From Gigantopelta aegis (taxonomy: Eukaryota; Mollusca; Gastropoda; Neomphalida; Peltospiridae), in assembly GCF_016097555.1 (NCBI RefSeq), contig NC_054703.1:9742285-9806284 (forward strand): a stretch of 64,000 nt of DNA. Reading direction: 5' to 3'. The position numbers and the translations under genes are program-made. Shown piece by piece: positions 8,881-61,265 of this stretch. The first letter of the stretch is position 1. The number at the start of each line of letters is the position of its first letter. The notes under the pieces were generated by a model that saw nothing but the letters and a program-made list of their open reading frames with translations, had not been told where the DNA came from and did not search any database.

Positions 8881-10095
8881 TGTCACAAGTCAAATGAGTA
8901 TATTATTTATAAGGTATATTTGTTTTTTAATGAGCTACACTGCCACTGTGTTTTGGTATTTATTTATAATATGACATTAGGACAGTGACAATGAGTAATG
9001 AACAATATTAGCTTGGATAATGATTACAGTTGGTGAATGTGGAAGACGGTCGTGAAGTGTGATGTAGTGCATGCATTGTGAGCTTGGGATGTGAGTAGTT
9101 TTGATGAATAAAAGCAGTGTACTCGGATGGGTTGGTCACTCTGACAATAATGTTTGGAAGTGTGTTTTAAGCTGGTACAAGAGCGTGAGTAGATGAATCT
9201 ATTTATTTTGAATGTTAAATAATTCATTATAGATGTTATAATTAATGTGGATTTGTGGAATTTTATATATTTACCCTGTGTAAATAAAGAAATTAACCCA
9301 AGTAGAAACTGAATTGGAGAAAGTTTTACATATAGATGAAAGGAATGTATTAGTTGGACACGTAAGCATTTGAAACCTATGAATGTAAAATATATATGCA
9401 TATAGAAGGTTAATATGCAGATGATATGAATGTGTGATGTTTAAATCTTTTATTGTAGTTTTAATCCACATGGGATAGGAGATGTAGTCGGGTTTCTCCT
9501 CTGTCTCAGCGAAGCACTCTTAGTATTGTAAGAGGAACTGTTGTGGATTGCTGGTTGGAACGGGACAAATGGTGTCTATAAGAAGTACTTAGTATCGTAA
9601 GAAGAAATGATGTGCTTGCTGGTTGGAACGGGACAAATCAGTACTGGATGACGGTAGTTGACTCAACGGTTGGAGAAACTCATCCAACATGGTGATGGGT
9701 GGTGGTGTGTGCATCCAATAGATGGGGGTGCCTGGTAATGAGGAACATTGGATTGGTTTATGTGGTTCTATTTGGAGAAATCTGTGAACATTTAGTTTAA
9801 ACTTTGTGTTCTTTATTGAACTGTAGAAACAGGAATAGTACATGCACAATGGAAACGAACTATATTGTAGGGTATAACAGTACATTTTTTATTGTTATTT
9901 GATATATATATATATATATATATATGTGTAAATAGTGTGTTGAAATGATTGGAATGCAATGAATGGTGGGATGAAAGATGGTGTGAAAGGGTATCGTATG
10001 GTTATGTGCATATATATTTAATATTGTTTACTTTCATTAAATTTATTGTTTCAACATTGTGTCTTGTTGTTCATCCTAGTTACGAGTACGTGACA
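8881..10095 (-). mobile_element. LTR-like insertion A (probable solo LTR), 1215 bp
   Basis: Begins TGTCACAAGT and ends ACGTGACA, i.e. TG...CA termini with inverse ends. It is flanked by the 5-bp direct repeat CGGTG (8876-8880 and 10096-10100). No reverse transcriptase, integrase or gag is inside, which fits a solo LTR of a Ty3/gypsy-like element. The minus strand is strikingly G-poor, like insertion B on its plus strand, and its last bases (TTGACTTGTGACA) equal those of B, so A is annotated in the opposite orientation to B. A short 'gctggttggaacgggacaaat'-type motif is repeated near 9555 and 9620. A non-autonomous TIR transposon with 5-bp duplications is the alternative. Confidence 0.7.
9901..9925. 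repeat. (AT)n microsatellite inside insertion A
   Basis: About 12 AT repeats. Confidence 0.9.
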
Positions 10096-11159
10096 CGGTG
10101 ACATCAACACAATTTATAATAATTCGACTCTAGGCGATTGGCCATATTTCGATTTTCACGGCTATAGTCACTGGACCATTATTCTGTCTATAGCCACAAT
10201 AAGTACCATTGGCAACATCCTGCAGTTCATAATGATGAGCGATTCCAAGCTGTCTTCCCTCTCCTACAGCGTGTACCTGAAATTCCTTGCTGTTTCTGAC
10301 ACCTTGGTCCTCATCTCGAATCTGTTGACGGAAACCGAAAAGCAGTTTCGTTTCCCGATGGTTGCTGACATCAACAACACTTTCTGTAAAATGTTCGTCA
10401 CCTACCAGTTATGCACAATGTTGTTATCACCATGGTTGGTTATAGGACTTAGTCTCGACAGATTCGTATGCGTCTGTTTTCCGCTGACACGGCGAAGATT
10501 TTGTACTAGGAAGACAAGCATTGCCGTCTGTTCGTGCATGGTTGCTGCAACCATTTTGCTAGTTCTACCCAGTTTCATTCTAACGAATAATGGCTGCTGT
10601 AATCAGTTAGATGAACTTGTCTACTACTTGCTGCAACTTCGTCTGATGATATCGGCCATGCTACCCTGCGTTGTAATCCTCCTCCTCAACATCGTTATGA
10701 TCGTTCGCATCAAACGTAGCAACGAGTTTCGAAACACGTTCATAAGGAACAGAGCAAATTCTTCGAACGACAGTTCAACACGCCCGTTGGTGTTAGTCTC
10801 GGTGTTGGCCTCTGTAACCTTGTTGCCGGTAACGACTTCAGAAACTATATCTCTGTCGCTGTATTATCTGCGATACTAAGCGGCATATTGTGGCCAGTGT
10901 TCCACATAATCTACTCGCTAAATTTCGGTCAGAAATGTTTCATCTTGATGGCAAGTTCACAGAACTATCGACAGATTATGAAGAGAAAAATAGGATGTGT
11001 CTGTGTGAAGAGAAGTCAAACAGGTGATAACCCACCACCACCACCACCACCACCACCACCACCTGCCGTTGGTTCCACAGTCAGTACGGATTCAGTTACA
11101 TTATCAGTGGTTACCTTTAACGCCACATGTTCAGGAATACCAGTTCCATAGTTATAATC

Positions 11160-24603: not shown

Positions 24604-25665
24604 TTATCGTCTTTTGTTCCAGAACACAAACAGCGTGCACAGCTCGCGTCTAAAGTAGGCGCCGGTGATGCTGTAGAGGAAGAAGTTGACGCAGTAGTTC
24701 ATGTAGAAGATGACGCGGGTCACGAGCAGGGCGTCATGCAGACCCGTGATGTTGTGTACGACATGCGAGGTGGAGACCGTCTCCGACAGCAGGAATAGCT
24801 TGATCCAGACGCAGAAGAAAGGAAGGTTGAGCATGACGAACACGAAGGAGACGACGAGAGGGATGATGGTGAACTCCAGACGGATGACGCTGTCCACGCT
24901 GACGGAGCTGCGCTGAGAACGGCGATGGACGCGATAGCGCTGGCAGAGCTTGCGGATGATCATCGTGTTCAGCACGGAGATGATGACGATGGGCACGAGG
25001 GTGATGAACACGGCGAAGATGTTGTCGAGCACGAACGACAGGAACCTGAAGTCCGGGTCGAACGTGCAGCGAGAGATCCTCGTCGGACCCACATGGTAGA
25101 CCCCACTGATGATCGGCTTGTAGACCATCAGACACAGACCGATCACCGCGATGCTTCCTATCGCCTTTTGCGCCGACCGGCTCCCGCACAGGTCCTTCCG
25201 CCGCAACGGGTGGCACACTCCGATGTATCTCTCGACGGTGAACGTGACGACGAACCAGGCGGAGAGGAACCGGCTGATGTAAGACAGGTACAGGGACAGC
25301 TGACAGATGCCGCGAGTCTCCAGGAAGTGCGGCAGAAATCCCTCCGATATGGACGGCATCCCTCGTCGCAGCCACTCCAGTACGACGTAGAACAGCAGAG
25401 CGAAAATGTCCGACAGCGACAGGGCGGCGAGGTAGATACTGGCCGACAGCTTCCTCATGTTTCGAGTCATGAACACCCGCAGGGAGAGCAGGTTGCCCGT
25501 CAGACCTATGACGAGGATGAATGGGGTGAAGTATGCGTAGAACTCCTGACAGAGGCTCACACCAGTCGAGTTCGCCTTTGTCTCACAGTTGCTCGCGTTG
25601 TGTTCGGTGAAGTTGATCTCGAGCACCGCCATCATCATCCCATCCTCTTGACATAGTCCTTCCAT
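24604..25665 (-). CDS. rhodopsin-family GPCR, FMRFamide/TRH-receptor-like
   Basis: Intact 353-residue seven-helix receptor, expected in the plasma membrane and coupling to G proteins. The extracellular N-terminus has N-glycosylation sites (NFT, NAS, NST). TM1 is at about 44-66 with the GN motif (57-58) and TM2 at about 77-95 with LSLSD (Asp86). Cys121 and Cys200 can form the conserved TM3-ECL2 disulfide. ERY (145-147) replaces DRY at the end of TM3. TM7 at about 315-335 carries NFFLY in place of NPxxY. This pattern resembles invertebrate FMRFamide- and TRH-receptor-like receptors; the ligand cannot be read. The ORF is G+C-rich compared with its surroundings and has no introns. The start at 25665 lies just 3' of a plausible splice acceptor (minus strand, ATTTTCAG ending at 25681), implying an intron in the 5' UTR. 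The start-codon segment is repeated in the array upstream (25666-27160). Confidence 0.88.
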   Translation of the reverse strand: MEGLCQEDGMMMAVLEINFTEHNASNCETKANSTGVSLCQEFYAYFTPFILVIGLTGNLLSLRVFMTRNMRKLSASIYLAALSLSDIFALLFYVVLEWLRRGMPSISEGFLPHFLETRGICQLSLYLSYISRFLSAWFVVTFTVERYIGVCHPLRRKDLCGSRSAQKAIGSIAVIGLCLMVYKPIISGVYHVGPTRISRCTFDPDFRFLSFVLDNIFAVFITLVPIVIISVLNTMIIRKLCQRYRVHRRSQRSSVSVDSVIRLEFTIIPLVVSFVFVMLNLPFFCVWIKLFLLSETVSTSHVVHNITGLHDALLVTRVIFYMNYCVNFFLYSITGAYFRRELCTLFVFWNKRR

Positions 25666-35145: not shown

Positions 35146-35482
35146 AAGGAAGGAAAGAAATGTTTTATTTAACGATGCACTCGACACATGTTATTTACGG
35201 TTATATGGCGTCAGACATATGGTTAAGGACCATATAGAATGATGTTGAAAGAGGAAACCCGCTGTCGCCACTTCATGGGCTACTCTTGTCGATTAGCTGC
35301 AAGGGATCTTGTTATGCACCATCCCACACAGGATAGCACATACCACGGCCATTGTTACACCAGTTGTGGAGCACTGACTAGACCTAAAAATAGCCAAATG
35401 GGTCCAACGACGTGGAACAATCCTAAACCAACCGTGCATCAAGCGAACGCTATACCACTGGGCTACGTCCCGCCCTCACAAT
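35146..35482 (-). repeat. SINE family 1, full length, inserted in LINE endonuclease
   Basis: Tail 'ttttatttaacgatgcactc' to head 'ccactgggctacgtcccgcc'. LINE sequence resumes on both sides. Confidence 0.85.
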
Positions 35483-35859
35483 TTGGAGCTACATGATTGG
35501 AGGCTAGTGTGAGATCTAAACATCTACTTAAAATAAAATGTGTGGTACAGTCATTTAAACAGACTATATTACATGTATCCCGAATTCTGCATGCGCCTTG
35601 TTCACACGTTGTATCTGAGCCCCAGCGGATATTTCTACTATTAAAGTCACCAACTATAATAGGGTTTTTTTCATTATTATTAATTAGTTTATTAAAATGA
35701 TTATCAGTTATATATTTTTGTTTACCTCGTGGGTGTATATAAATGTTGTATAAGTTAGTTTTATCATTTTCTCCATGAATAGTTATCCCATCTAAAATTA
35801 GTGCTTGAATAAATCACTGAATAGCCTTTTATTATTGTACTGAAGTAGTATAAATGACT

Positions 35860-36315
35860 GTACAGCGTCCGTGACCTTGACCTTGGTGCACTTAGTAGGT
35901 GTCTGGCCTTGGTGTGAGTCATAGTGGTGTGGTCTACTAGGGTGAACGCTCGCCCGTGTCCCTGACCGACTTAGGTTGGTACTGATGTCCTTGGACTGGC
36001 CATGACCGATTTGTTTAGCATTCACCGACTTAGAAGGCAGTGACTGGTATACCTGGGCAGGTGTGCGACCTTGGTGTAAGTCATAGCCTTGACGTACTTG
36101 GTGTGTGACTCATCACCTAGCCTTGACCTATCTAGAGGGTAGTGAGTGGCATAACTGGTGCAGGTAAGCAGCCGTGACTCATATTTTACCATTGGCATAC
36201 TTGGGCCTGTACTGACGTCCTTAGGCTGGCCTTGGCCAGGTTCTGACGTCCTTGGACCGTCCCCCGACTACTGTCCTTGGCCTACTTACGACTGGCCCCT
36301 TGACCTATGTAGGCT
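35860..36315. repeat. degenerate CCTTGAC/CTTGG-rich repeat region upstream of the viral-like genes
   Basis: Short motifs recur irregularly: 'ccttggtgtaagtcatag' / 'ccttggtgtgagtcatag', 'gacgtccttgg' / 'gacgtccttagg', 'ggtagtgagtggcata' / 'ggcagtgactggtata'. The G+C content is clearly above that of the flanks. It ends just before a TATA box. It could be an old minisatellite or a control region of the viral-like block. Confidence 0.6.
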
Positions 36316-36325
36316 CGTATTTGGA

Positions 36326-36335
36326 TATAAAAAGG
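36326..36335 (+). promoter_or_regulatory. TATA box of the BIR gene
   Basis: TATAAAAAGG about 95 bp before the ATG at 36430. The spacing suits a short 5' UTR. Confidence 0.6.
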
Positions 36336-36429
36336 GGTGTTTTGTTAGTAGCGTCATACGCTTGCCGAACGTTCTGTGAACGAGATCTATTTTTGCTTTG
36401 GAGTTTGAAGATATTCTGGTACGAAGAAA

Positions 36430-37005
36430 ATGACATCGGAATATTCGAGAAGTGTTAGTAGCAGCAGCAGTAGCGACGAGGACGACGTCTTGGTCTGCAA
36501 ATGTTCAGAAAGACATACAATCAAATGTAAAAGAGTGACTACCAAACAAGATGAGAAGAAGAAGAGTATTCATTATACGGATCAAACGGATGCTACACGT
36601 GAAATTGGGGTTGGAACTGAAGATGGCGAACTCGTGGACTCCAACCCCAATTTCACGTGTAGCATCCGTTTGATCTGTATCACAGATCAGACGGATGCTG
36701 CCTGTGAAACAGATGCTGCCTGTGAAGAAGATTGCTATTCAAGACGTTACGTGTTCTGTCATCGTCCCGAAATGAGACATTTCTATGCCCGGATGCTGAC
36801 GTATGCTCGGTGGCCCATACAATTACATCAAAAACCAAAAGAACTTGCCAAGGCCGGTTTCTACTACACGGGAGACCACGATGCCATCACATGTTACTGT
36901 TGCGGACTTCGCGTCTACCGATGGAAGAAGACAGACGACCCAGTGATGGAACATTACAGACTCCCTCCAAGATGTCCTTATGTGAACAACATGTTCAGAC
37001 ATTAA
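36430..37005 (+). CDS. BIR-domain (IAP-like) protein of a viral or Polinton-like block
   Basis: 191 residues. The N-terminus is Ser- and Asp/Glu-rich (SSSSSSDEDD, about 9-19), followed by a low-complexity linker with repeated TDQTDA / DAACE units (about 50-100). A BIR domain occupies about 117-188. Its zinc ligands fit the family spacing CX2CX16HX6C exactly: Cys155, Cys158, His175, Cys182, with GFYYTG and DDP landmarks. BIR proteins in IAPs, baculoviruses and other large DNA viruses bind caspases or other proteins and often block apoptosis. Here that role is only inferred, and there is no RING domain. The gene has its own TATA box and an AATAAA at 37049. The linker DNA forms a 41-bp inverted repeat. 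No introns, unlike most host IAP genes. A host-derived retrocopy is the main alternative. Confidence 0.8.
   Translation: MTSEYSRSVSSSSSSDEDDVLVCKCSERHTIKCKRVTTKQDEKKKSIHYTDQTDATREIGVGTEDGELVDSNPNFTCSIRLICITDQTDAACETDAACEEDCYSRRYVFCHRPEMRHFYARMLTYARWPIQLHQKPKELAKAGFYYTGDHDAITCYCCGLRVYRWKKTDDPVMEHYRLPPRCPYVNNMFRH
36575..36680. repeat. 41-bp inverted repeat within the BIR ORF
   Basis: The left arm 36575-36615 pairs with the right arm 36640-36680 with one mismatch (36579 region against 36676), with a 24-base loop. It codes for linker residues 49-84, so the peptide repeats are a by-product. A shorter direct repeat (GATGCTGCCTGTGAA) follows at about 36692-36725. Confidence 0.9.
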
Positions 37006-37048
37006 TTTTTTTAGACACTAGTGTGCTATGTTTTCATGTTGTATGTTG

Positions 37049-37054
37049 TGAATA
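37049..37054 (+). terminator. poly(A) signal of the BIR gene
   Basis: AATAAA 44 bp after the stop codon. Confidence 0.6.
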
Positions 37055-37283
37055 AAACCGTGAATAACAGGTTTTGCTTCCTTATTTATGTCCTGCGTCC
37101 ATGAGTGTGTCTCTGGACGTGTCCCTATGGTAGTGACACTGTTAAAGGGTAAAGGGTAATATTTTGGTAACGATGTTTTTTGGGAGCTCGCACGATGAGA
37201 TTTGTGCTTGGGAGGAGGGGCACTGGCCATACGTATCACACACATTCAAACATTCCTGTACCATATCTTTATGCGTCATAAGG

Positions 37284-37291
37284 TATATAAG
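37284..37291 (+). promoter_or_regulatory. TATA box of the 'YVPD' gene
   Basis: TATATAAG 54 bp before the ATG at 37345. Confidence 0.6.
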
Positions 37292-37344
37292 AAAAATAGT
37301 TTTGGAAAACTCGTAATTTGAGGTAGAACCTTCAGAGGAGCAAC

Positions 37345-37680
37345 ATGTCAGACCAGTACAAGTTATATGTACCCGACGTGGATAAGTGGACCCGTTTCTA
37401 TAAACTGCAGGCACAAGGTAAACTTCAATCTCACTTCGAAATTCAACGTGGTGGGGAAAGTCAGATCATGTACAGTGTGGATCGATGTCTAGAACTCTAC
37501 GATCCCACGTGGGAAAAAGAAAAAGAGGAACAGAACAAGCCCTCGACACCCCAAGTCGTCATGGTCTCCCCAACACAACAGGTGGTAGAGCAAGCCAAAG
37601 CCGATCTGAAACGGAAACAACAACAACAACAACAAAGTGGTACGGGTTGGAAAGCCCCGAAACTGCAGAAGCATTTCTAA
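37345..37680 (+). CDS. short conserved-looking protein of the viral-like block ('YVPD' protein)
   Basis: 111 residues starting MSDQYKLYVPDVDKWTRFYK. The middle is charged, followed by a region VSPTQQVVEQAKADLKRK that can form a helix, a run of six Gln, and a basic end. No catalytic motif and no membrane segment. I recall short Polinton/adintovirus ORFs with a similar YVPD-x-x-KW opening, but this is low-confidence memory. It is bracketed by its own TATA box (37284) and an AATAAA at 37680 overlapping the TAA stop, so it is a compact transcription unit. The ORF is intact. Function unknown; a structural or DNA-associated virion protein is possible but not shown. Confidence 0.6.
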   Translation: MSDQYKLYVPDVDKWTRFYKLQAQGKLQSHFEIQRGGESQIMYSVDRCLELYDPTWEKEKEEQNKPSTPQVVMVSPTQQVVEQAKADLKRKQQQQQQSGTGWKAPKLQKHF

Positions 37681-37685
37681 ATAAA
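37680..37685 (+). terminator. poly(A) signal overlapping the stop codon
   Basis: AATAAA whose first base is the last base of the TAA stop, only 1 bp ahead of the next TATA box. Confidence 0.55.
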
Positions 37686-37686
37686 C

Positions 37687-37695
37687 TATAAAAGG
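37687..37695 (+). promoter_or_regulatory. TATA box of the ATPase gene
   Basis: TATAAAAGG 42 bp before the ATG at 37737. Confidence 0.6.
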
Positions 37696-37736
37696 AACTA
37701 TGTGGGTCAGATATCGTCATTTTATTTAGAGTCGTC

Positions 37737-38397
37737 ATGCAGAGCACATGTTCAGAATGTGGTTTCACATTCTCGAGGAGAGACATTTTCAGACAAAAAC
37801 ATGCTAAACGTCTACCACCACCACCACCACCACATCAACCACCACCACCACCACAGCAGCAGCCACCACCACCACCACCACCACCACCACAAACACCACC
37901 ACCACCACAGCAGGTTCCACCACCACCACCACCACAGCAGCAGCAGCATCCCCTAAGATTGCTACATCCCTTCACCATGATCGTGTCGGGACCCACGTCG
38001 TGTGGAAAGACATTTTTGGTATACAAATTGTTGAGGGATGGTAAAATCCAGCCGCCTCCCCAGAGTCAGAAATCTCATCGTGTTGAACGACCTGATGTGT
38101 ATGGCTAATAAAGACCCAAGGATCACCGACCTGTTCACAGAAGGAAGTCATCACAGAAACTTGTCCGTCATCGCTATCAACCAGAACCTGTATCACAGCA
38201 TGGACCCGACACAGAGAAGAAACTGCCACTATCTAGCGCTGTTCAACAACCCCATCGACAAGCAGCAAGTTCTGACTTTGGCACGGCAGATGAATCCGGA
38301 AAACACTAGTCATTTCATGCATCAGTTTGAGGAAGCTACCCACAGGCCCTACGGACATCTCTTGGTGGACTTGAAACCGACCACGCCCGAACATTGA
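37737..38397 (+). pseudogene. A32/FtsK-like packaging ATPase (Polinton/adintovirus type), internally deleted
   Basis: The first part (37737-38108 frame) has a CxxC zinc-finger-like start (CSEC ... KH, residues 5-22), a ~40-residue poly-Pro/Gln tract, then LHPFTMIVSGPTSCGKT with the Walker A box at 85-92. The second part lies in another frame (in-frame Met at 38038, to 38397). It has RNLIVLNDLM, a Walker B with Asn where Polinton ATPases usually have Asp, then LFTEGSHHRNLSV, INQNLYH (sensor), LFNNP, LARQMNP and PYGHLLVDLKP. This order is the signature of the genome-packaging ATPase of Polintons/Mavericks and related viruses, which pumps DNA into the capsid. Roughly 40 residues expected between the two parts are missing and the frame shifts there, within about 38050-38070. 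It is therefore non-functional as it stands. Confidence 0.82.
37815..37950 (+). repeat. (CCA)n / (CAG)n trinucleotide tract inside the ATPase gene
   Basis: About 40 near-perfect CCA codons with CAG interruptions, coding for proline and glutamine between the zinc finger and Walker A. Confidence 0.9.
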
Positions 38398-38439
38398 CGT
38401 CTTCGGCCTAATGGTTTAGAGACGGGGCCGTCCGAATGG

Positions 38440-38447
38440 TATAAAAG
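38440..38447 (+). promoter_or_regulatory. TATA box of the zinc-finger gene
   Basis: TATAAAAG 25 bp before an ATG at 38465 and 78 bp before the in-frame ATG at 38518. Confidence 0.55.
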
Positions 38448-38464
38448 CACGAGTGTAACGGCGA

Positions 38465-39090
38465 ATGTCTCAGAAGACGTGCAACCACCGTCGAAGAAAG
38501 AGCTCTACCTGCAAATTATGCAAAGGGACGCATTCAAGAGAAAACTACCAGGCATACCCGCCTACAAAAGTGACGACGAAGAAGATGATGAGGTAGAACC
38601 CTATCTGAAAAAAGTCAAGAGGATGCAGTCTTGCGATACGTGTGGTCTGGTCTTTAAAGACGGAAGCGACTTGCAGCGACACGTGAAAACGTGCGAAGAG
38701 GGAAATGGAGAGCTGTCGCCCGACCTGGAAAACGAAGGCATTCGTCGCATGGTGGAACGTGAATTCGACATCAACCATGACTATCTCCAAAGCAAGAGGA
38801 AACGCTACGAAGAAAAAAACATGTCCCAAGATGCCATTGAAAGAAACATGAAGACATTGCAATAGAAGTTATTTAAAGACACGTACTCTCGCTTTCTGAC
38901 ATGTATGCATTACTTTGACAAAGGTCCCAACACCAGGAAAATTTTACAGTTTGTGAATCCAGACAAAAATGTGAGACCACGGATTCGTTCTAAATTAAAT
39001 CAGTATCGTTCATGGATTGGCGAATATTTGGATGAACAAAACGACGACGATACCGACGATGAGGAGGACGACAGTGATGAAGAGAAATGA
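38465..39090 (+). pseudogene. zinc-finger protein with acidic tail, disrupted
   Basis: The main frame runs 38518-38865, or from 38479 without an ATG. It encodes a charged N-terminal region, a CDTC ... RHVKTC finger (CX2CX12HX3C), and a Glu/Arg/Lys-rich helical region ending MKTLQ. After a TAG at 38863-38865 the same frame stays open to 39090. That part encodes RFLTCMHYFDKGPNTRKIL and a very acidic end (DDDTDDEEDDSDEE), so the stop looks like a nonsense change within one gene. The nearest ATG to the TATA box (38465) is in another frame, so the 5' end is probably damaged as well. Similar CxxC...H fingers occur in accessory ORFs of Polinton-like elements. An AATAAA at 39197 follows. Confidence 0.65.
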
Positions 39091-39196
39091 ACACTCATAT
39101 TATTCACATGTCGCCCTTAAGGCCTCTCGATGTAACCCAGTGTGTATCCATTTCATGTGTAGTTGTCTCTAGAGAGACCAGTAATTGTAATTTAGA

Positions 39197-39202
39197 AATA
39201 AA
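39197..39202 (+). terminator. poly(A) signal after the viral-like block
   Basis: AATAAA in an A-rich stretch 107 bp after the last stop codon. Confidence 0.5.
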
Positions 39203-39269
39203 AAAAATAAAAACCAAACCATTGCGTTTGTTTTTTGTGTTTTTTTTACTCTATGACTAGATTTGTGAT

Positions 39270-39420: not shown

Positions 39421-39563
39421 CCATTTGGTAATTAAAAAGCCTTTAAAAAGGCTTGTACTCTAGGGAAATACTTGTGTTTAAAATGCAGCTAAAAGCTCAT
39501 AGGTTAGGTTGGAGGGTTGAGTTGCAGTCACGCGTTCTTTCTTCAAAGCAATGGGCTGGGGAT

Positions 39564-39570
<7 letters not shown>

Positions 39571-39620
<50 letters not shown>
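39571..39620. repeat. (CA)n microsatellite followed by CCTTTCTT repeats
   Basis: About 25 CA repeats, then three copies of 'attcctttcttctccttaac'-type units to 39700. Confidence 0.9.
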
Positions 39621-39621
<1 letters not shown>

Positions 39622-39719
39622 CCTTTCTTCCCTTAACAAACATTCCTTTCTTCTCCTTGACAAATATTCCTTTCTTCTCCTTAACGCATATGCCTTTCTT
39701 ATTAAAGGAGAGGACAATT

Positions 39720-40370
39720 AAGGCATTTGGCCTGGTATGCATATTCAACGATATATAATGCACATTATTGTTAATATCAACACGTATAATCGTATAGTTA
39801 ATTAATAAAACGGTTAAATGTGACGACTATTATATATACATTGCAATGTTCTGTAATAATACACATCCCAGTAAGCCAGCAATAAGTATATCTAGCACTA
39901 TATATATTATTTTTCAATACAAAATAAAATACCATTGTCAAAGTGGCTACACAACAAGACGAAACAATTAACAATGTTTTGCCCATGCGTTAACCTACGC
40001 ACTGAAATGATACACGGAGTGTTTTTAATTGGTCTATGCTGTTAGTTTCTTCTACCTGTGATTCCTGAATGGCAGGTGTGTACTTGACTGGTAACCAGAC
40101 GAGCCAATTAATTGACGCTGTCTAGACACAAAAATACATACCGGTATTGTGGAATATTACCTGCCGCCTCTAAAATTACGCGTTTTGCATTTGCTAAAGT
40201 GTCAGTATGTGTTGCTGGTCCAGGTATGCATCTTTCCAACACATAAGGCTCTTGTTTGAGTTGACCCTACCTTTAACAAACATTCCTTTCTTCGAGACAA
40301 ATGTGTCTTTCTTTCCCTATGACTAAAACAAAATACTAAAACTAAATATTTGTATTCAATTAATCTTTAT
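39720..40370. other. no recognisable gene
   Basis: A+T-rich; 'aacaaacattcctttcttc' near 40278 repeats part of 39636-39656. Confidence 0.45.
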
Positions 40371-40375
40371 TTTAC

Positions 40376-41870
40376 GAGGAAGGAAATGTTTTATTTACTC
40401 AACACATTTTGTTTACGGTTATACGGACATATGGTTAAGGACCACTGTGACGGAACATGCTCTTAATTTTGTTTTCGCCTGTGGCGATATTAATTGTTTT
40501 AGAAGGCCGTGTGCAGTTCCAAATGCACTTAGCCAGATGGGCAAGTTGTTACGTAATACTTCTGCGCGACGGTCCTCGAGCTGTACTTTCTAATACACAT
40601 CCAGCCAGGTACGGAGGCCATGTGGCGAGTAGTTACGTAATACCTCCGCGAGTGCGGTTTTTACAACCGTGATTTGGCGACGATGGCGACAGACAGTCTG
40701 ACGATCAGAGAAAAATATACCGACTCTGGGAGAGGTGGAATATCAGATGATAGGTGAGGTACCGCGTTGTACCCCCAGGCGATATTCGCTGTCTCTGAGA
40801 GTTTGAATAAATAGCTAGGGTTTAGAGATATCGAGGAGAACCATAGGAAGGTATCCCGGGGGAACGTTGTCCGTTTGGACTTTGGTAAATATATTATTTC
40901 TGCTCTGTTGTATAACCTTGATGTGATTGATGTGACTTTTAAATATTTTAATACTGTATTATACCAATATTCTTTAGACAGTGTCTTCGGTCATCTGACG
41001 AAGTAAATCGTAGACTTATTGTTCTAACATTATACGAGTATTTGGTAATATAAAGCTTAGCCAGTCATCCTAGAGGACCTAGGTAAACTGTAGGTTATTG
41101 TCTTTATTGTGATAGGTACCAGTATTAATTCTGTGTTACAAGGTTACTGAATGAGTAGTTAGGGTTAATTAAAAATTAACCAGTTAGGAATAGTGTTGTA
41201 ATTCCTTTATTAATTAAGTTCCCCTGGAAGCGTTTCTCTATTATCGCACGTGTGTGTTAGCGTTTCTCAATTATCACACGTGTGGGTGTTGTGTCACGGT
41301 GAAGTGATTAGCATATTGTGTAAACTAGACACCTAGAGATTAACTAATTAAGTGATCAGTTCTGGGTTGTTATTATTGTTGTTATTAATTAACTACTGCG
41401 GCAGTACATTTGTCAGCGTAGGTTAATACAGATTCCAAAGTGTATTGTGTTTTCTAGTGAACTAAACGTGCTATAATAATATATACTTTATATAAGATCT
41501 TATCTCTGATCATACCTAGACGAGCCAAAGCGGTTTTGAACTGCCCGTTACAGAGATATCTAATAGATATACAGTTAGGAGAGATATTTGGACAATCGTG
41601 TTTTATTCAGTTACGGGTATTATAGAATCCCCGTGACAACCACACATATATTGATTGAGGAAACCCGCTGTCGCCACTTTATGGGCTACTTTTTTTTTAT
41701 TAGCAGTAAGGGATCCTACACTATCCCACAGACAGGATAGTACATACCACGGTCGTTGTCCATTTGTGGAGCACTGGCTGGATATAGCCCAATGGGCGAA
41801 CCGACGGGGATCGATCCCAGACCAACCGCACATCAAGGGAACACTGAGCTACGTCACGTCCCCACGGTTA
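40376..41870 (-). repeat. SINE family 1 split by LTR-like insertion C
   Basis: The SINE tail is at 40376-40445 (up to 'ggttaaggaccac') and the rest at 41639-41870 (from 'accacacatatattga' to 'cgtcccc'). The two parts join perfectly at the duplicated ACCAC. Confidence 0.85.
40446..41638. mobile_element. LTR-like insertion C (solo LTR), 1193 bp
   Basis: Begins TGTGACGGAACATG and ends TCCCCGTGACA (TG...CA, with inverse termini TGTSACGG). It is flanked by the 5-bp duplication ACCAC (40441-40445 and 41639-41643). No internal coding domain, so it fits a solo LTR of a Ty3/gypsy-like retrotransposon. It contains a duplicated 'gcacgtgtg' + 'gcgtttctcaattatc' segment (41230-41285). Sequence unrelated to A and B except for the terminal hexanucleotide. 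Confidence 0.8.
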
Positions 41871-41906
41871 TTAGAGGATGCTTGTATTGGGTTCTGCTTG
41901 AACATA

Positions 41907-41907
41907 A

Positions 41908-41962
<55 letters not shown>

Positions 41963-41979
41963 AATAAAAACAAACAAAA

Positions 41980-42034
<55 letters not shown>

Positions 42035-42066
42035 AATAAAAACAAATAAATAAATAAATAAATAAA
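41907..42066. repeat. (AAAT)n microsatellite
   Basis: Roughly 35 AAAT/TAAA units with two 'acaaa' interruptions. Confidence 0.95.
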
Positions 42067-42163
42067 CTAATTAAAAAAATTATAATAGAAAAAAAAATAC
42101 CCTACCACATAAAATACGAACGACGAACCTTTCACGCTTAAGTCGACTACGCTAACGACTGAG

Positions 42164-42221
42164 CATTTTATTAGTCGAAAACATCTTATAATGGAGCAAA
42201 CTCAGGAATGTCCCTTTAAGA
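42164..42221. repeat. palindromic MITE family 1, right end only
   Basis: 'ttattagtcgaaaacatctt' to GCAAACTCAGGAATGTCC + CTTTAA. Confidence 0.8.
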
Positions 42222-55219: not shown

Positions 55220-56721
55220 TATACTCTTCAAAAAAAGAAACGCAAAAGGGTACAAATGGGTTATAACTCCGATTTTATGTTTCCTACCGGTTCATGCTTT
55301 GTGAATATAAGGTCATTGCATGTCCCAAACACATTCCCACGGTTACATTCGATAAAACGCAGCTACTGTACATTAAAGTTCCAAAATGTGAATATTCGCA
55401 AAAACGCAGCCACGTGCAAACCATGTCACCACTGCACGTGCGTTGTCTGCACGTGCAACATGAACACCGACAGTATAAAAGTGCAGGGTGTTCGCTTGCC
55501 TGGCCTCTGTATCTGGCCGACAGTTGACAATCCAGGACATGCCACGTCTCAGTGAACCGCAGAGAAACAATGCCATCGGCCGACTAGACGCAGGCGAATT
55601 CAGAACGGCCGTTGCCAGGGCATTCCATGTGTCCCCAAGCACCATCTCCAGACTGTGGGACCGTTACCAGCAACATGGATCAACACGTGACCTCCCTAGA
55701 TCTGGTCGACCACGGGTCACTACCCCCGGGCAGGACCGCTACATCCGGGTACGCCACCTTCGGGAACGATTGACTACTGCCACCTCCACAGCCGCAGCAA
55801 TACCAGGTTTGCGCAGGATATCCGACCAGACCGTACGGAACCACCTACGTGAGGTAGGAATTCGTGCCAGACGTCCAGTTCGAGGTGTCATCTTAACACC
55901 ACAACACCGTCGACTCCGACTGCAGTGGTGCCAGATTCATCGACAATGGCCTCAACTGCGATGGAGACAGGTGTGGTTCAGTGACGAGTCCCGATTTCTG
56001 CTCCGACGTCATGATGGAAGATGTCGCGTGTATAGGCGTCGTGGTGAACGTTATGCGGCAAACTGCGTGCAGGAAGTGGACAGATTCGGCGGGGGTAGTG
56101 TCATGGTGTGGGCAGCCATCTCACACACTGGCAGAACTGACCTGGTCCACGTGCAGGGCAACCTGAATGCACAGGGCTACATTGACCAGATCCTCCGGCC
56201 ACACATCGTTCCAGTTATGGCCAACGCCAACGCAGTGTTCCAACATGACAACGCCAGGCCTCACACAGCACGTCTCACAACGGCTTTCCTACAGAACAAC
56301 AACATTAATGTCCTTCCTTGGCCATCGATATCACCGGATTTGAACCCAATTGACCATCTATGGGACGAGTTGGATCGACGCCTCCGACAGCGACAACCAC
56401 AGCCCCAGACCCTGCCCGAGCTGGCAGCAGCCTTGCAGGCCGAGTGGGCCACCATCCCCCGGGACGTCATCCGTACTCTGGTTGCTTCAATGGGCAGGCG
56501 GTGCCAGGCAGTTGTCAACGCACGCGGAGGCCACACCCGGTATTGACTCCAGATGACCTTGACCTTGGTGGTGTGTCCTATCACTTACTCACAATGGACT
56601 AGAGTGAATTGTGAACAATCCTGCAACATTTGGTAATTATCGGACTCACCATTCAATAATTAAATCAATTCTCCAAATGTTACGACAATGTGGTTTTGCG
56701 TTTCTTCTTTTGAAGAGTATA
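55220..56721 (+). mobile_element. full-length Tc1/mariner element
   Basis: 28-bp terminal inverted repeats at 55220-55247 and 56694-56721 differ at one position (core TACTCTTCAAAA and GAAACGCAAAA), with TA at both outer ends as expected for a TA target duplication. About 1.5 kb long, with a single intact transposase gene and nothing else. Inserted in or next to the LINE remnant that ends near 55.1 kb. Confidence 0.9.
55539..56546 (+). CDS. Tc1/mariner transposase (DD34E), intact
   Basis: 335 residues from the preferred Met (MPRLSEPQRNNAIGRLDAGE); an upstream in-frame ATG at 55488 would add 17 residues lacking family similarity. The N-terminal paired-like helix-turn-helix region has FHVSPSTISRLWDRY and GRPRVTTPGQD. 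The catalytic domain has WFSDESRF (first Asp), RFGGGSVMVWAAIS, FQHDNARPHTA (second Asp) and SPDLNPIDHLWDELDR (third acidic residue, Glu), the Tc1 DD34E pattern. It catalyses cut-and-paste transposition by binding the terminal repeats of the element. No stop or frameshift, and G+C-rich relative to flanks, so this is a recent and possibly active copy. Confidence 0.92.
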   Translation: MPRLSEPQRNNAIGRLDAGEFRTAVARAFHVSPSTISRLWDRYQQHGSTRDLPRSGRPRVTTPGQDRYIRVRHLRERLTTATSTAAAIPGLRRISDQTVRNHLREVGIRARRPVRGVILTPQHRRLRLQWCQIHRQWPQLRWRQVWFSDESRFLLRRHDGRCRVYRRRGERYAANCVQEVDRFGGGSVMVWAAISHTGRTDLVHVQGNLNAQGYIDQILRPHIVPVMANANAVFQHDNARPHTARLTTAFLQNNNINVLPWPSISPDLNPIDHLWDELDRRLRQRQPQPQTLPELAAALQAEWATIPRDVIRTLVASMGRRCQAVVNARGGHTRY

Positions 56722-60007: not shown

Positions 60008-61168
60008 CTAGGGAACTGGCATTTCTGAACGTGCGGTATTAGAAATAACTATTGCCATTGAAACAGCATCCGTAGTTTCTGCGGATCCAACAGATTGTAG
60101 AGCTGGTAAATTATGGCGTGTTCGTTCCACCTTCTCAGAAAAGCATACAAGTTTTCTCTTCATAATATGGCGATAGTTTTGTGAACTTGCCATCAAGATG
60201 AAAAAGTTCTGTCCGAAATTTAGCAAGTAGAATATGTGGAACGCTGGCCACAACCCGAAGCCTAGGAACACAGCTGTTGTGTCTGCTTCCAGAAAGAAGG
60301 GTAGCTGAGAGATCGATTCTGAAACCGAGACGGGTAGCAAGGTCACGAAGGCCAGTACCGAGATTAACACCAGGGGGCGTGTTGAATTTTCTTTTGTAGA
60401 CTCTTTTCTGTGCCTTGTGAAAGTGTTCCGAAACTCGTTGCTGCGTTTGATGCGAGAGATTATGCCGATGTTCAGGAGGAGTATGATAACACAGGGTAGC
60501 AGTGATGACATTATCAGACGCAGAAACATGGAATAATGGAGTAACAGACCGGGCGGTCTACATCCGTAATTCCCCAACTCCATGAGACCCAAACTGGGTA
60601 AACATAGCAGGATGCTTCCACCAATCATACATGAACAGACGACAATAGATTTTTTCTTCGTACAAAATCTTCCCCGTGTCAGCGGAAAACAGACGCATAC
60701 GAATCTGTCGAGAGTAAGTCCTACCATTAGCCATGGCGACAGCAACATTGTGAAGACCTCGTAGCTGATGACAATTTTACAGAGGACGTTGTTGATGTCA
60801 GGAACTTTCGTCAGTTTAAAATAGTACTCAGTTTGTTGAGCTATAGCGTCGCTTAGGACGAGACTGTCAGACACAGAAAGGAATTTCAGGTACACGCTGT
60901 AGGAGAGGGGAGATAAGGGGGAGTCGCTCATCATTATGAACTGCAGGATGTTGCCAATGGTGCCTATTATGGCTATAACCAGAACTGTGGACCAGTGGCC
61001 ATAGCCATGTAAATCAAAATCTAGCCCGCCGTCTAGGAACGATTGATTATCATCATATATTATGAATTCTCCATCAGAATAGTTTCTGTTACCAACAATG
61101 CCGAGATCATCAATTGACACGGTAAAGTTGGATGTTTGGTTTGGTGAAAATTGTGACGGTGTTGACAT
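60008..61168 (-). CDS. rhodopsin-family GPCR, orphan lineage-specific type
   Basis: Intact 386-residue seven-helix receptor. The Asn-rich extracellular N-terminus has glycosylation sites (NQT, NFT, NYS, NQS). TM1 is at about 60-80 with GTIGN (69-73) and TM2 at about 93-110 with VSDSLVL (Asp101). Cys130 and Cys203 probably form a disulfide. LDRF (153-156) replaces DRY. TM5 lies at 213-238, TM6 at 265-285 and TM7 at 303-325 with LNFGQNFFILMA where NPxxY would be. The tail is about 60 residues, with MKRK and several Ser/Thr. Plasma-membrane signalling is expected; the ligand is not readable. Altered DRY and NPxxY suggest a divergent, mollusc-expanded group (peptide or chemosensory receptor). A splice acceptor (TTTTGCAG) lies just upstream of the ATG on the minus strand, near 61200. 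The paralogue at 8759-11151 is broken. Confidence 0.88.
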   Translation of the reverse strand: MSTPSQFSPNQTSNFTVSIDDLGIVGNRNYSDGEFIIYDDNQSFLDGGLDFDLHGYGHWSTVLVIAIIGTIGNILQFIMMSDSPLSPLSYSVYLKFLSVSDSLVLSDAIAQQTEYYFKLTKVPDINNVLCKIVISYEVFTMLLSPWLMVGLTLDRFVCVCFPLTRGRFCTKKKSIVVCSCMIGGSILLCLPSLGLMELGNYGCRPPGLLLHYSMFLRLIMSSLLPCVIILLLNIGIISRIKRSNEFRNTFTRHRKESTKENSTRPLVLISVLAFVTLLPVSVSESISQLPFFLEADTTAVFLGFGLWPAFHIFYLLNFGQNFFILMASSQNYRHIMKRKLVCFSEKVERTRHNLPALQSVGSAETTDAVSMAIVISNTARSEMPVP

Positions 61169-61265
61169 GTTTCAGATATGGCGTCCTCGGCGTATCACCT
61201 GCAAAATAAGGTAGTAAAGGTAAATAACGCAAACATACAAAGGTGCTCACAGTTTTAATAAACTC

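What the first reader, a model, noticed from the sequence alone, without database searches (positions are those of the whole stretch)
36320..39205. Compact viral/Polinton-like gene block with a BIR protein in an animal genome
Four adjacent same-strand genes are each short and intronless, and each is preceded by its own TATA box (36326, 37284, 37687, 38440). Three poly(A) signals separate or follow them, one overlapping a stop codon and lying 1 bp before the next TATA box (37680-37695). One gene is clearly a Polinton/adintovirus-type packaging ATPase, one has a textbook BIR zinc motif, and two encode CxxC...H fingers. This layout is typical of DNA viruses and foreign to the surrounding SINE/LINE landscape. 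A virus-like element carrying an IAP-like gene next to the packaging module would be a good candidate for an undescribed lineage.
Basis: partly seen in the sequence, partly recalled or inferred. Interest (0 to 1): 0.87.

Follow-up and report, generated by a model that had tools for sequence, protein, structure and literature searches.

The report
Polinton offshoot carrying an apoptosis gene
The genome of the deep-sea vent snail Gigantopelta aegis carries at least 150 copies of a virus-derived block with an apoptosis-inhibitor-type (BIR) gene and a DNA-packaging motor gene; in the copies read end to end it is a short mobile element without a recognisable polymerase, integrase or capsid gene, so it likely spreads with the help of full-length relatives.

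Summary
The block is real and virus-derived, but it is not a four-gene virus fragment. The window lies in the Gigantopelta aegis genome and holds one decayed copy of a high-copy element (150 matches scored; 1,000-1,300 first-look candidates). Two uninterrupted copies are 6.9 kb long, with 1.5-1.7 kb terminal inverted repeats. All four end-resolved copies begin AGTAGT, the commonest end motif of vertebrate Mavericks, and have 6-bp target duplications (perfect in 3 of 4). The element has three genes: a BIR protein, a 111-aa protein, and one protein of zinc finger, polyproline, packaging ATPase and second zinc finger. No polymerase, integrase or capsid gene was recognised inside the end-resolved copies; protein-primed polymerase genes in long open frames occur elsewhere in the genome. 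Best reading: a non-autonomous Maverick/Polinton derivative, likely mobilised in trans, that kept a packaging motor and carries a BIR gene. Evidence for selection is moderate for the ATPase and weak for the BIR. Public annotation names several of its BIR genes as host IAPs. The helper's identity, and any packaging, are untested.

The parts
35844..36127 (.). Left end (AGTAGT at 35844) and outer part of the left terminal inverted repeat; most of the inner arm is missing in this copy
   Evidence: matches the outer arm of other copies, then the match jumps to 36250.
36250..36429 (+). Upstream region of the BIR gene with the TATA box at 36326
   Evidence: aligned in other copies from 36250; TATA box kept in 17 of 18 aligned copies.
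36430..37005 (+). BIR gene, 191 aa, open; single BIR domain at residues 121-185, no RING domain found
   Evidence: PF00653, 3.2e-21; 150 copies listed, 74-96% identical where full length.
36575..36680 (.). Inverted duplication of 41 nt inside the BIR frame, private to this copy
   Evidence: 98% complementary, 24 nt apart; absent in 19 of 19 and 11 of 11 other copies tested.
37051..37056 (+). AATAAA after the BIR gene
   Evidence: kept in 26 of 26 aligned copies.
37345..37680 (+). 111-aa gene of unknown function, with the TATA box at 37284
   Evidence: 6 homologs at E<=1; found in 27 of 28 copies; TATA box kept in 27 of 27.
37737..38108 (+). ATPase gene, first piece: zinc finger, Pro/Gln-rich stretch, Walker A; TATA box at 37687
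   Evidence: PF02456 0.0068, below cut-off; TATA box kept in 26 of 26.
38038..38397 (+). ATPase gene, second piece: rest of the packaging ATPase domain, in another frame after a loss of about 120 bp; ends at a stop private to this copy
38398..39090 (+).
   Evidence: same open frame as the ATPase in 27 of 28 copies.
39533..39705 (.). Inner part of the right terminal inverted repeat
   Evidence: matches both arms of other copies.
39706..40272 (.). Insertion of about 0.57 kb into the element
   Evidence: absent in the seven copies compared (L002-L008).
40273..40445 (.). Right inverted repeat, continued
   Evidence: 97-98% identical to other copies.
41639..42164 (.). Right inverted repeat, last recognisable part; the outer right end was not found in the window

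Best explanation
The window holds one decayed copy of a Maverick/Polinton-derived element, 6.9 kb when uninterrupted, with AGTAGT ends, long terminal inverted repeats, 6-bp target duplications and three genes (BIR protein, 111-aa protein, zinc finger-packaging ATPase-zinc finger) but no recognised polymerase, integrase or capsid gene, and it is therefore likely replicated and inserted in trans by full-length Polintons of the same snail genome. Shown: ends, repeats, duplications, gene content and order, copy number, and the damage to the window copy. Inferred: supply of polymerase and integrase in trans. Inferred and less certain: the ATPase would pull the element's own DNA into capsids made by a helper, its zinc fingers would recognise that DNA, and the BIR protein would delay death of the cell while this happens.
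For: Ends and target duplications: AGTAGT on both arms of 4 of 4 end-resolved copies; 6-bp duplications perfect in 3 of 4, 5 of 6 bases in the fourth; (AGT)2//(ACT)2 is the commonest end motif of vertebrate Mavericks (PMC8097293, section 7 read). Gene content: in the end-resolved copies the frames of 120 aa or more that were scanned with Pfam gave BIR and zinc-finger matches with weak ATPase-type ones, nested reverse transcriptase and DDE transposase, or nothing. Co-linearity: BIR in 26, 111-aa gene in 27, ATPase in 28 of 28 copies; 111-aa gene downstream of 12 of 12 BIR loci, the window's own included; 59 of 150 listed ATPase hits have a listed BIR hit 0.73-2.65 kb upstream on the same strand, 0 downstream, 0 on the other strand. 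Possible helpers: 124 PF03175 matches from 91 scored of 211 candidates, many in frames of 1,000-1,614 aa, 0 of 14 control genomes. Selection: ATPase dN/dS 0.45 pooled, 0.35 among the most diverged pairs; 111-aa gene 0.39; shared ATPase changes favour codon position 3 (27/22/45, p=0.009), single-copy ones do not (42/39/45).
Against: No polymerase-bearing element with the same terminal repeats was shown: that search did not complete, nor was the one for the protease family. Four of 86 polymerase rows have a listed family copy within 20 kb where 0.77 would be expected; one lies 4.3 kb downstream of a BIR copy, so a longer, polymerase-bearing relative is not excluded. Neutral simulations for single pairs spread widely (ATPase mean 0.76, sd 0.25, minimum 0.28); the direct contrast of shared against single-copy changes is not significant (Fisher p=0.074 ATPase, 0.075 BIR, 0.59 for the 111-aa gene). 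BIR dN/dS is 0.68 pooled with no downward trend against a neutral 0.92. All 28 copies come from the upper half of a score-sorted list. Nothing shows packaging.
Confidence: 0.62

Rival explanations
1. The short element is an ordinary deletion derivative: a full Polinton with a BIR accessory gene lost its other genes, the ends stayed usable by a helper, and the three genes are passive cargo without a role in spread.
For: Non-autonomous elements generally need only their ends. BIR dN/dS is close to the neutral simulation (0.68 against 0.92) and without a trend; contrasts of shared and single-copy changes are not significant.
Against: ATPase and 111-aa dN/dS of 0.45 and 0.39 and the excess of position-3 changes among shared ATPase sites; only 6 of 150 listed ATPase matches hold a stop in the 112-residue stretch (a score-sorted list).
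Confidence: 0.25
2. The three-gene block is one module of a longer, complete virus-like element, and the copies that I could read end to end happen to be short forms.
For: One polymerase match lies 4.3 kb downstream of a BIR copy, on the same strand, where the known element breaks off in the polyproline stretch; polymerase matches within 20 kb of listed copies are 4 against 0.77 expected.
Against: 82 of 86 polymerase rows have no listed copy within 20 kb (the copy lists are capped at 150 each). Four of four end-resolved copies have the block between the two ends with no recognised core gene except the ATPase.
Confidence: 0.1
3. The BIR ORF is a host IAP gene, or a retrocopy of one, that lies beside viral remains by chance.
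For: Mollusc IAP families are expanded, and many intronless hard clam IAPs are put down to retroposition (PMC7831173, passages). Public annotation names several relatives as host IAPs.
Against: BIR lies in fixed order with the other genes in 26 of 28 copies and inside the same terminal repeats; P0135, an annotated G. aegis 'putative inhibitor of apoptosis', holds pieces of the BIR, 111-aa and second-finger genes in that order.
Confidence: 0.03

Closest known systems
Maverick/Polinton elements (polintoviruses)
   Same: AGTAGT ends, terminal inverted repeats, 6-bp target duplications, packaging ATPase of the same family.
   Different: 6.9 kb against 12.7-24.6 kb for intact vertebrate Mavericks; no recognised polymerase, integrase or capsid gene; ATPase fused to zinc fingers at both ends; BIR gene.
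Non-autonomous DNA transposons
   Same: Terminal inverted repeats, high copy number, no recognised integrase or transposase of their own.
   Different: Keeps a viral packaging ATPase and two other genes in open frames in many copies.
Satellite viruses and phage satellites that use helper capsids (recalled, no call)
   Same: Would depend on a helper while bringing a packaging function of its own.
   Different: No particle, helper or packaging shown; integrated animal element.
IAP/BIR proteins (NAIP, cIAP, XIAP)
   Same: BIR zinc motif; 82 distinct PDB chain sequences match at E<=0.001.
   Different: Single BIR, no RING domain found, acidic repetitive N-terminus, encoded by a mobile element.
ATPase relatives P0005, P0031, P0062 (no species name given)
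   Same: ATPase followed by a C2H2-like motif (pattern search).
   Different: 66-72% identical to the window's ATPase piece; their neighbours were not seen.

Membership tests
Maverick/Polinton | (AGT)2//(ACT)2 end motif | tested here: met
   Both arms of 4 of 4 end-resolved copies; motif from PMC8097293 section 7.
Maverick/Polinton | 6-bp target-site duplication | tested here: met
Perfect in 3 of 4 copies, 5 of 6 bases in the fourth.
Maverick/Polinton | Terminal inverted repeats | tested here: met
   Arms found in 6 of 8 copies, and a 280-bp inverted match in a seventh.
Maverick/Polinton | Genome-packaging ATPase | tested here: met
   28 of 28 copies.
Maverick/Polinton | Protein-primed DNA polymerase B in the element | tested here: not met
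   No such frame in the end-resolved copies; no listed PF03175 match lies in them.
Maverick/Polinton | Retroviral-type integrase in the element | tested here: not met
   No Pfam match among the scanned frames of the end-resolved copies.
Maverick/Polinton | Capsid proteins and protease in the element | tested here: inconclusive
   No frame left over in the two uninterrupted copies that is likely to be one, but capsid proteins are poorly covered by Pfam and PF00770 did not complete.
IAP | BIR domain with its zinc ligands | tested here: met
   (PF00653, 3.2e-21) and the sequence.
IAP | Inhibits apoptosis or caspases | not testable with these tools
   Needs an assay.
Satellite virus | Packaged into helper particles | not testable with these tools
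   Needs particle-protected DNA from the animal.

The most novel reading that the evidence does not exclude
A self-packaging satellite of Polintons in an animal genome: an element without polymerase, integrase or capsid that brings its own zinc-finger-fused packaging motor to steer helper capsids to its own DNA, and its own BIR protein to keep the cell alive while it is packaged, and which has outnumbered its helpers (over 1,000 first-look candidates against 211 for the polymerase).
Probability: 0.35. Interest if true: 0.88.

Novelty: new variant of a known kind. Interest (0 to 1): 0.74.

Why it matters
If right, a packaging motor can be the gene that a Polinton derivative keeps after losing polymerase and capsid. 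Reported Polintons without a capsid gene often lack protease and ATPase as well (nine such elements, PMC4028283, passage), so this would be the reverse case; it would point to packaging as something selected in these elements and make the question whether animal Polintons form particles testable. It also warns that some expanded IAP families reported in molluscs may be mobile-element genes. Six BIR proteins annotated in G. aegis, some named XIAP-like or BIRC-like, are 53-63% identical to the window's BIR protein; IAP appears beside mobile elements in a figure legend of the G. aegis genome paper (PMC7895826, passage); and 42 intronless BIR-only genes in hard clam were put down to retroposition (PMC7831173, passage). 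Whether the clam genes lie in such elements was not tested.

Tried and rejected
Four separate genes: rejected, genes 3 and 4 share one open frame in 27 of 28 copies. Relatives in IMG/VR: five scans (ATPase piece, BIR, three alignments) gave none. Fold of the 111-aa protein: model of moderate confidence (pLDDT 66.5), no BFVD match at E<=0.001. Fold of the BIR protein: unusable model (pLDDT 36.6). PHROGs: only one match below 0.01, to the acidic 61-aa tail (0.0054), not taken as meaningful. P0102, a relative with the shorter ATPase form, as a query for a canonical ATPase gene in the own genome: 150 listed hits in open frames of 195-732 aa, so no separate canonical gene was picked out. The direct repeats at 35151 and 40377, first taken as possible ends, belong to sequence that matches many places in the window; the left end is at 35844.
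Full report
Where the window lies. It is G000:C5:9742285-9806284 of a 1.149-Gb assembly. The lengths of contigs C4, C12, C7 and C14 equal those of contigs that carry annotated Gigantopelta aegis proteins, so the animal is the deep-sea vent snail G. aegis.

The observation. The BIR frame (36430-37005) and the 111-aa frame (37345-37680) are open. The ATPase is in pieces: 37737-38108 holds a zinc finger, a Pro/Gln-rich stretch and Walker A; 38038-38397 holds the rest of the domain in another frame; 38398-38865 and the same frame on to 39090 hold a second zinc finger and an acidic tail. Against seven other copies about 120 bp is missing near 38060, and the stops at 38395 and 38863 occur in none of 28 copies.

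Copies in the genome. The piece 38038-38394 gave 150 scored matches out of 1,159 first-look candidates, up to 97% identical after the window itself; the BIR protein gave 150 listed matches out of 1,014 candidates. Only the best candidates are scored, so the true copy number is between these figures or unknown above them. BIR was found in 26, the 111-aa gene in 27, the ATPase in 28; ATPase and second finger share one open frame (441-732 aa from stop to stop) in 27. From the other side, 12 of 12 BIR loci, the window's own included, have the 111-aa gene downstream. By coordinates alone, 59 of 150 listed ATPase hits have a listed BIR hit 0.73-2.65 kb upstream on the same strand; none has one downstream or on the other strand. 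In a tree of 116 ATPase rows (29 of this family, 87 of the 120 listed homologs after length and gap filters) the window and the 28 copies form one clade, support 0.85.

Anatomy. Among the eight long copies inverted arms were found in 6, and a 280-bp inverted match in a seventh. In the three best ones the arms align over 1.5-1.7 kb at 97-98% identity. Four copies have both ends resolved. Two are uninterrupted, 6,900 and 6,933 bp; two are 9,297 and 10,340 bp and contain nested insertions, one with a DDE_Tnp_4 transposase and one with a LINE reverse transcriptase. All four begin AGTAGT on both arms. The 6-bp target duplication is perfect in three (TGTGTT, TATATG, CACAGG) and agrees in 5 of 6 bases in the fourth. 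Vertebrate Mavericks most often have (AGT)2//(ACT)2 ends, measure 12.7-24.6 kb and have repeats of 46-1,447 bp (PMC8097293, section 7 read). Frames of 120 aa or more in the end-resolved copies were scanned with Pfam: besides BIR, the zinc fingers, weak ATPase-type matches and the nested elements, 11 frames gave nothing at E<=0.01. One is an antisense frame of 155-304 aa over the BIR/111-aa gap, seen in seven copies; it may be chance.

The window copy starts at 35844, has lost most of its left arm (the match jumps from 36127 to 36250), carries a 0.57-kb insertion (39706-40272), and its right arm is recognisable to 42164. Its BIR frame carries a private 41-nt inverted duplication, absent in 19 and 11 other copies tested.

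Signals. The TATA boxes before BIR, the 111-aa gene and the ATPase are kept in 17 of 18, 27 of 27 and 26 of 26 aligned copies; the AATAAA after BIR in 26 of 26. The fourth TATA box is kept in 27 of 28 but lies in the coding frame of the fused ATPase, so its conservation says nothing about a promoter. The AATAAA over the 111-aa stop is kept in 3 of 26, the last one in 15 of 28.

Selection. Nei-Gojobori dN/dS among 23 ATPase copies is 0.45 pooled, and 0.63, 0.71, 0.51 and 0.35 by rising divergence; among 15 copies of the 111-aa gene 0.39; among 19 BIR copies 0.68 without a downward trend. Neutral simulations with the same transition bias gave means of 0.76, 0.84 and 0.92, with standard deviations of 0.25, 0.38 and 0.23 for single pairs and a minimum of 0.28 for the ATPase. 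ATPase changes shared by two or more copies favour codon position 3 (27/22/45, p=0.009) while single-copy changes do not (42/39/45, p=0.81); the direct contrast of the two is not significant (Fisher p=0.074). For the BIR domain the figures are 5/5/13 (p=0.06) against 19/18/18 (Fisher p=0.075), for the 111-aa gene 6/2/10 (p=0.07) against 13/15/25 (p=0.10; Fisher p=0.59). Relatedness was not modelled and only open frames were used. This supports selection on the ATPase while the element spread; for the 111-aa gene the ratio is low; for the BIR the case is weak.

Helper. The genome holds protein-primed polymerase genes: 124 PF03175 matches from 91 scored of 211 candidates, many in frames of 1,000-1,614 aa; 0 of 14 control genomes rang. 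Of these, 82 have no listed family copy within 20 kb; 4 do, where 0.77 would be expected. One lies 4.3 kb downstream of the BIR copy at C13:20091773, whose element breaks off in the polyproline stretch. It may be a nested insertion or a longer relative; I could not fetch it. Whether any polymerase element shares the terminal repeats was not tested, because that search did not complete.

Mechanism. Supply of polymerase and integrase in trans is the simplest account of a high-copy element with Maverick ends and target duplications but none of those enzymes. The preserved ATPase asks for more: nine Polintons without a capsid gene were reported also to lack protease and ATPase (PMC4028283, passage), yet here the ATPase is what remains. 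I therefore favour a satellite-like life in which the motor, with zinc fingers at both ends, would favour the element's own DNA during packaging by helper proteins, and the BIR protein would delay cell death. These last steps are inference.

Annotation. Of the nine homologs of the BIR protein, seven carry names, all G. aegis. Several are named as host IAPs; one, named piezo-type channel component 2-like, starts with a BIR piece. P0135, 'putative inhibitor of apoptosis', holds pieces of the BIR, 111-aa and second-finger genes in order.

In print. Nine searches of the held library were made. The search that set Polinton, Maverick and adintovirus terms against IAP terms found 16 papers with three or more terms; the 12 listed have no IAP term. 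No paper holds both Gigantopelta and Maverick. I saw titles, abstract starts and term counts, passages of seven papers and one section in full. The paper that proposed adintoviruses was not held, so a BIR gene in such an element may be described there.

Noticed in passing
window 36575-36680: Near-perfect 41-nt inverted duplication inside the BIR frame that keeps the frame open; it looks like a fold-back template switch and is private to this copy.
   Followed up: yes
G000:C13:20091773-20096701 (L047): A BIR/111-aa copy breaks off in the polyproline stretch and a protein-primed polymerase match starts 4.3 kb downstream of the BIR start on the same strand; nested insertion or longer relative.
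   Followed up: partly
L009:8494-9006 (- strand) and matching places in other copies: Antisense open frame of 155-304 aa over the BIR/111-aa gap in seven of eight long copies, no Pfam match in the three scanned.
   Followed up: partly
P0129 and P0135 (annotated G. aegis proteins): Gene models that fuse element pieces: a BIR piece with a piezo-type channel, and BIR, 111-aa and second-finger pieces in one protein.
   Followed up: partly
P0005, P0031, P0062 (no species name): ATPase relatives with a C2H2-like motif after the ATPase domain, so the fusion may be wider than this element.
   Followed up: partly
window 55479-56546: 355-aa open frame that by eye looks like a Tc1/mariner transposase; no search run.
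   Followed up: no
window 24604-25665 (-) and 60008-61171 (-); 10094-11151 (+): Long open frames that by eye look like rhodopsin-type GPCRs; the first two are intact-looking, the third is split. No search run.
   Followed up: no
window 35147-35448 and several other places: A dispersed repeat that matches many places in the window and also lies inside the element's inverted repeats.
   Followed up: partly
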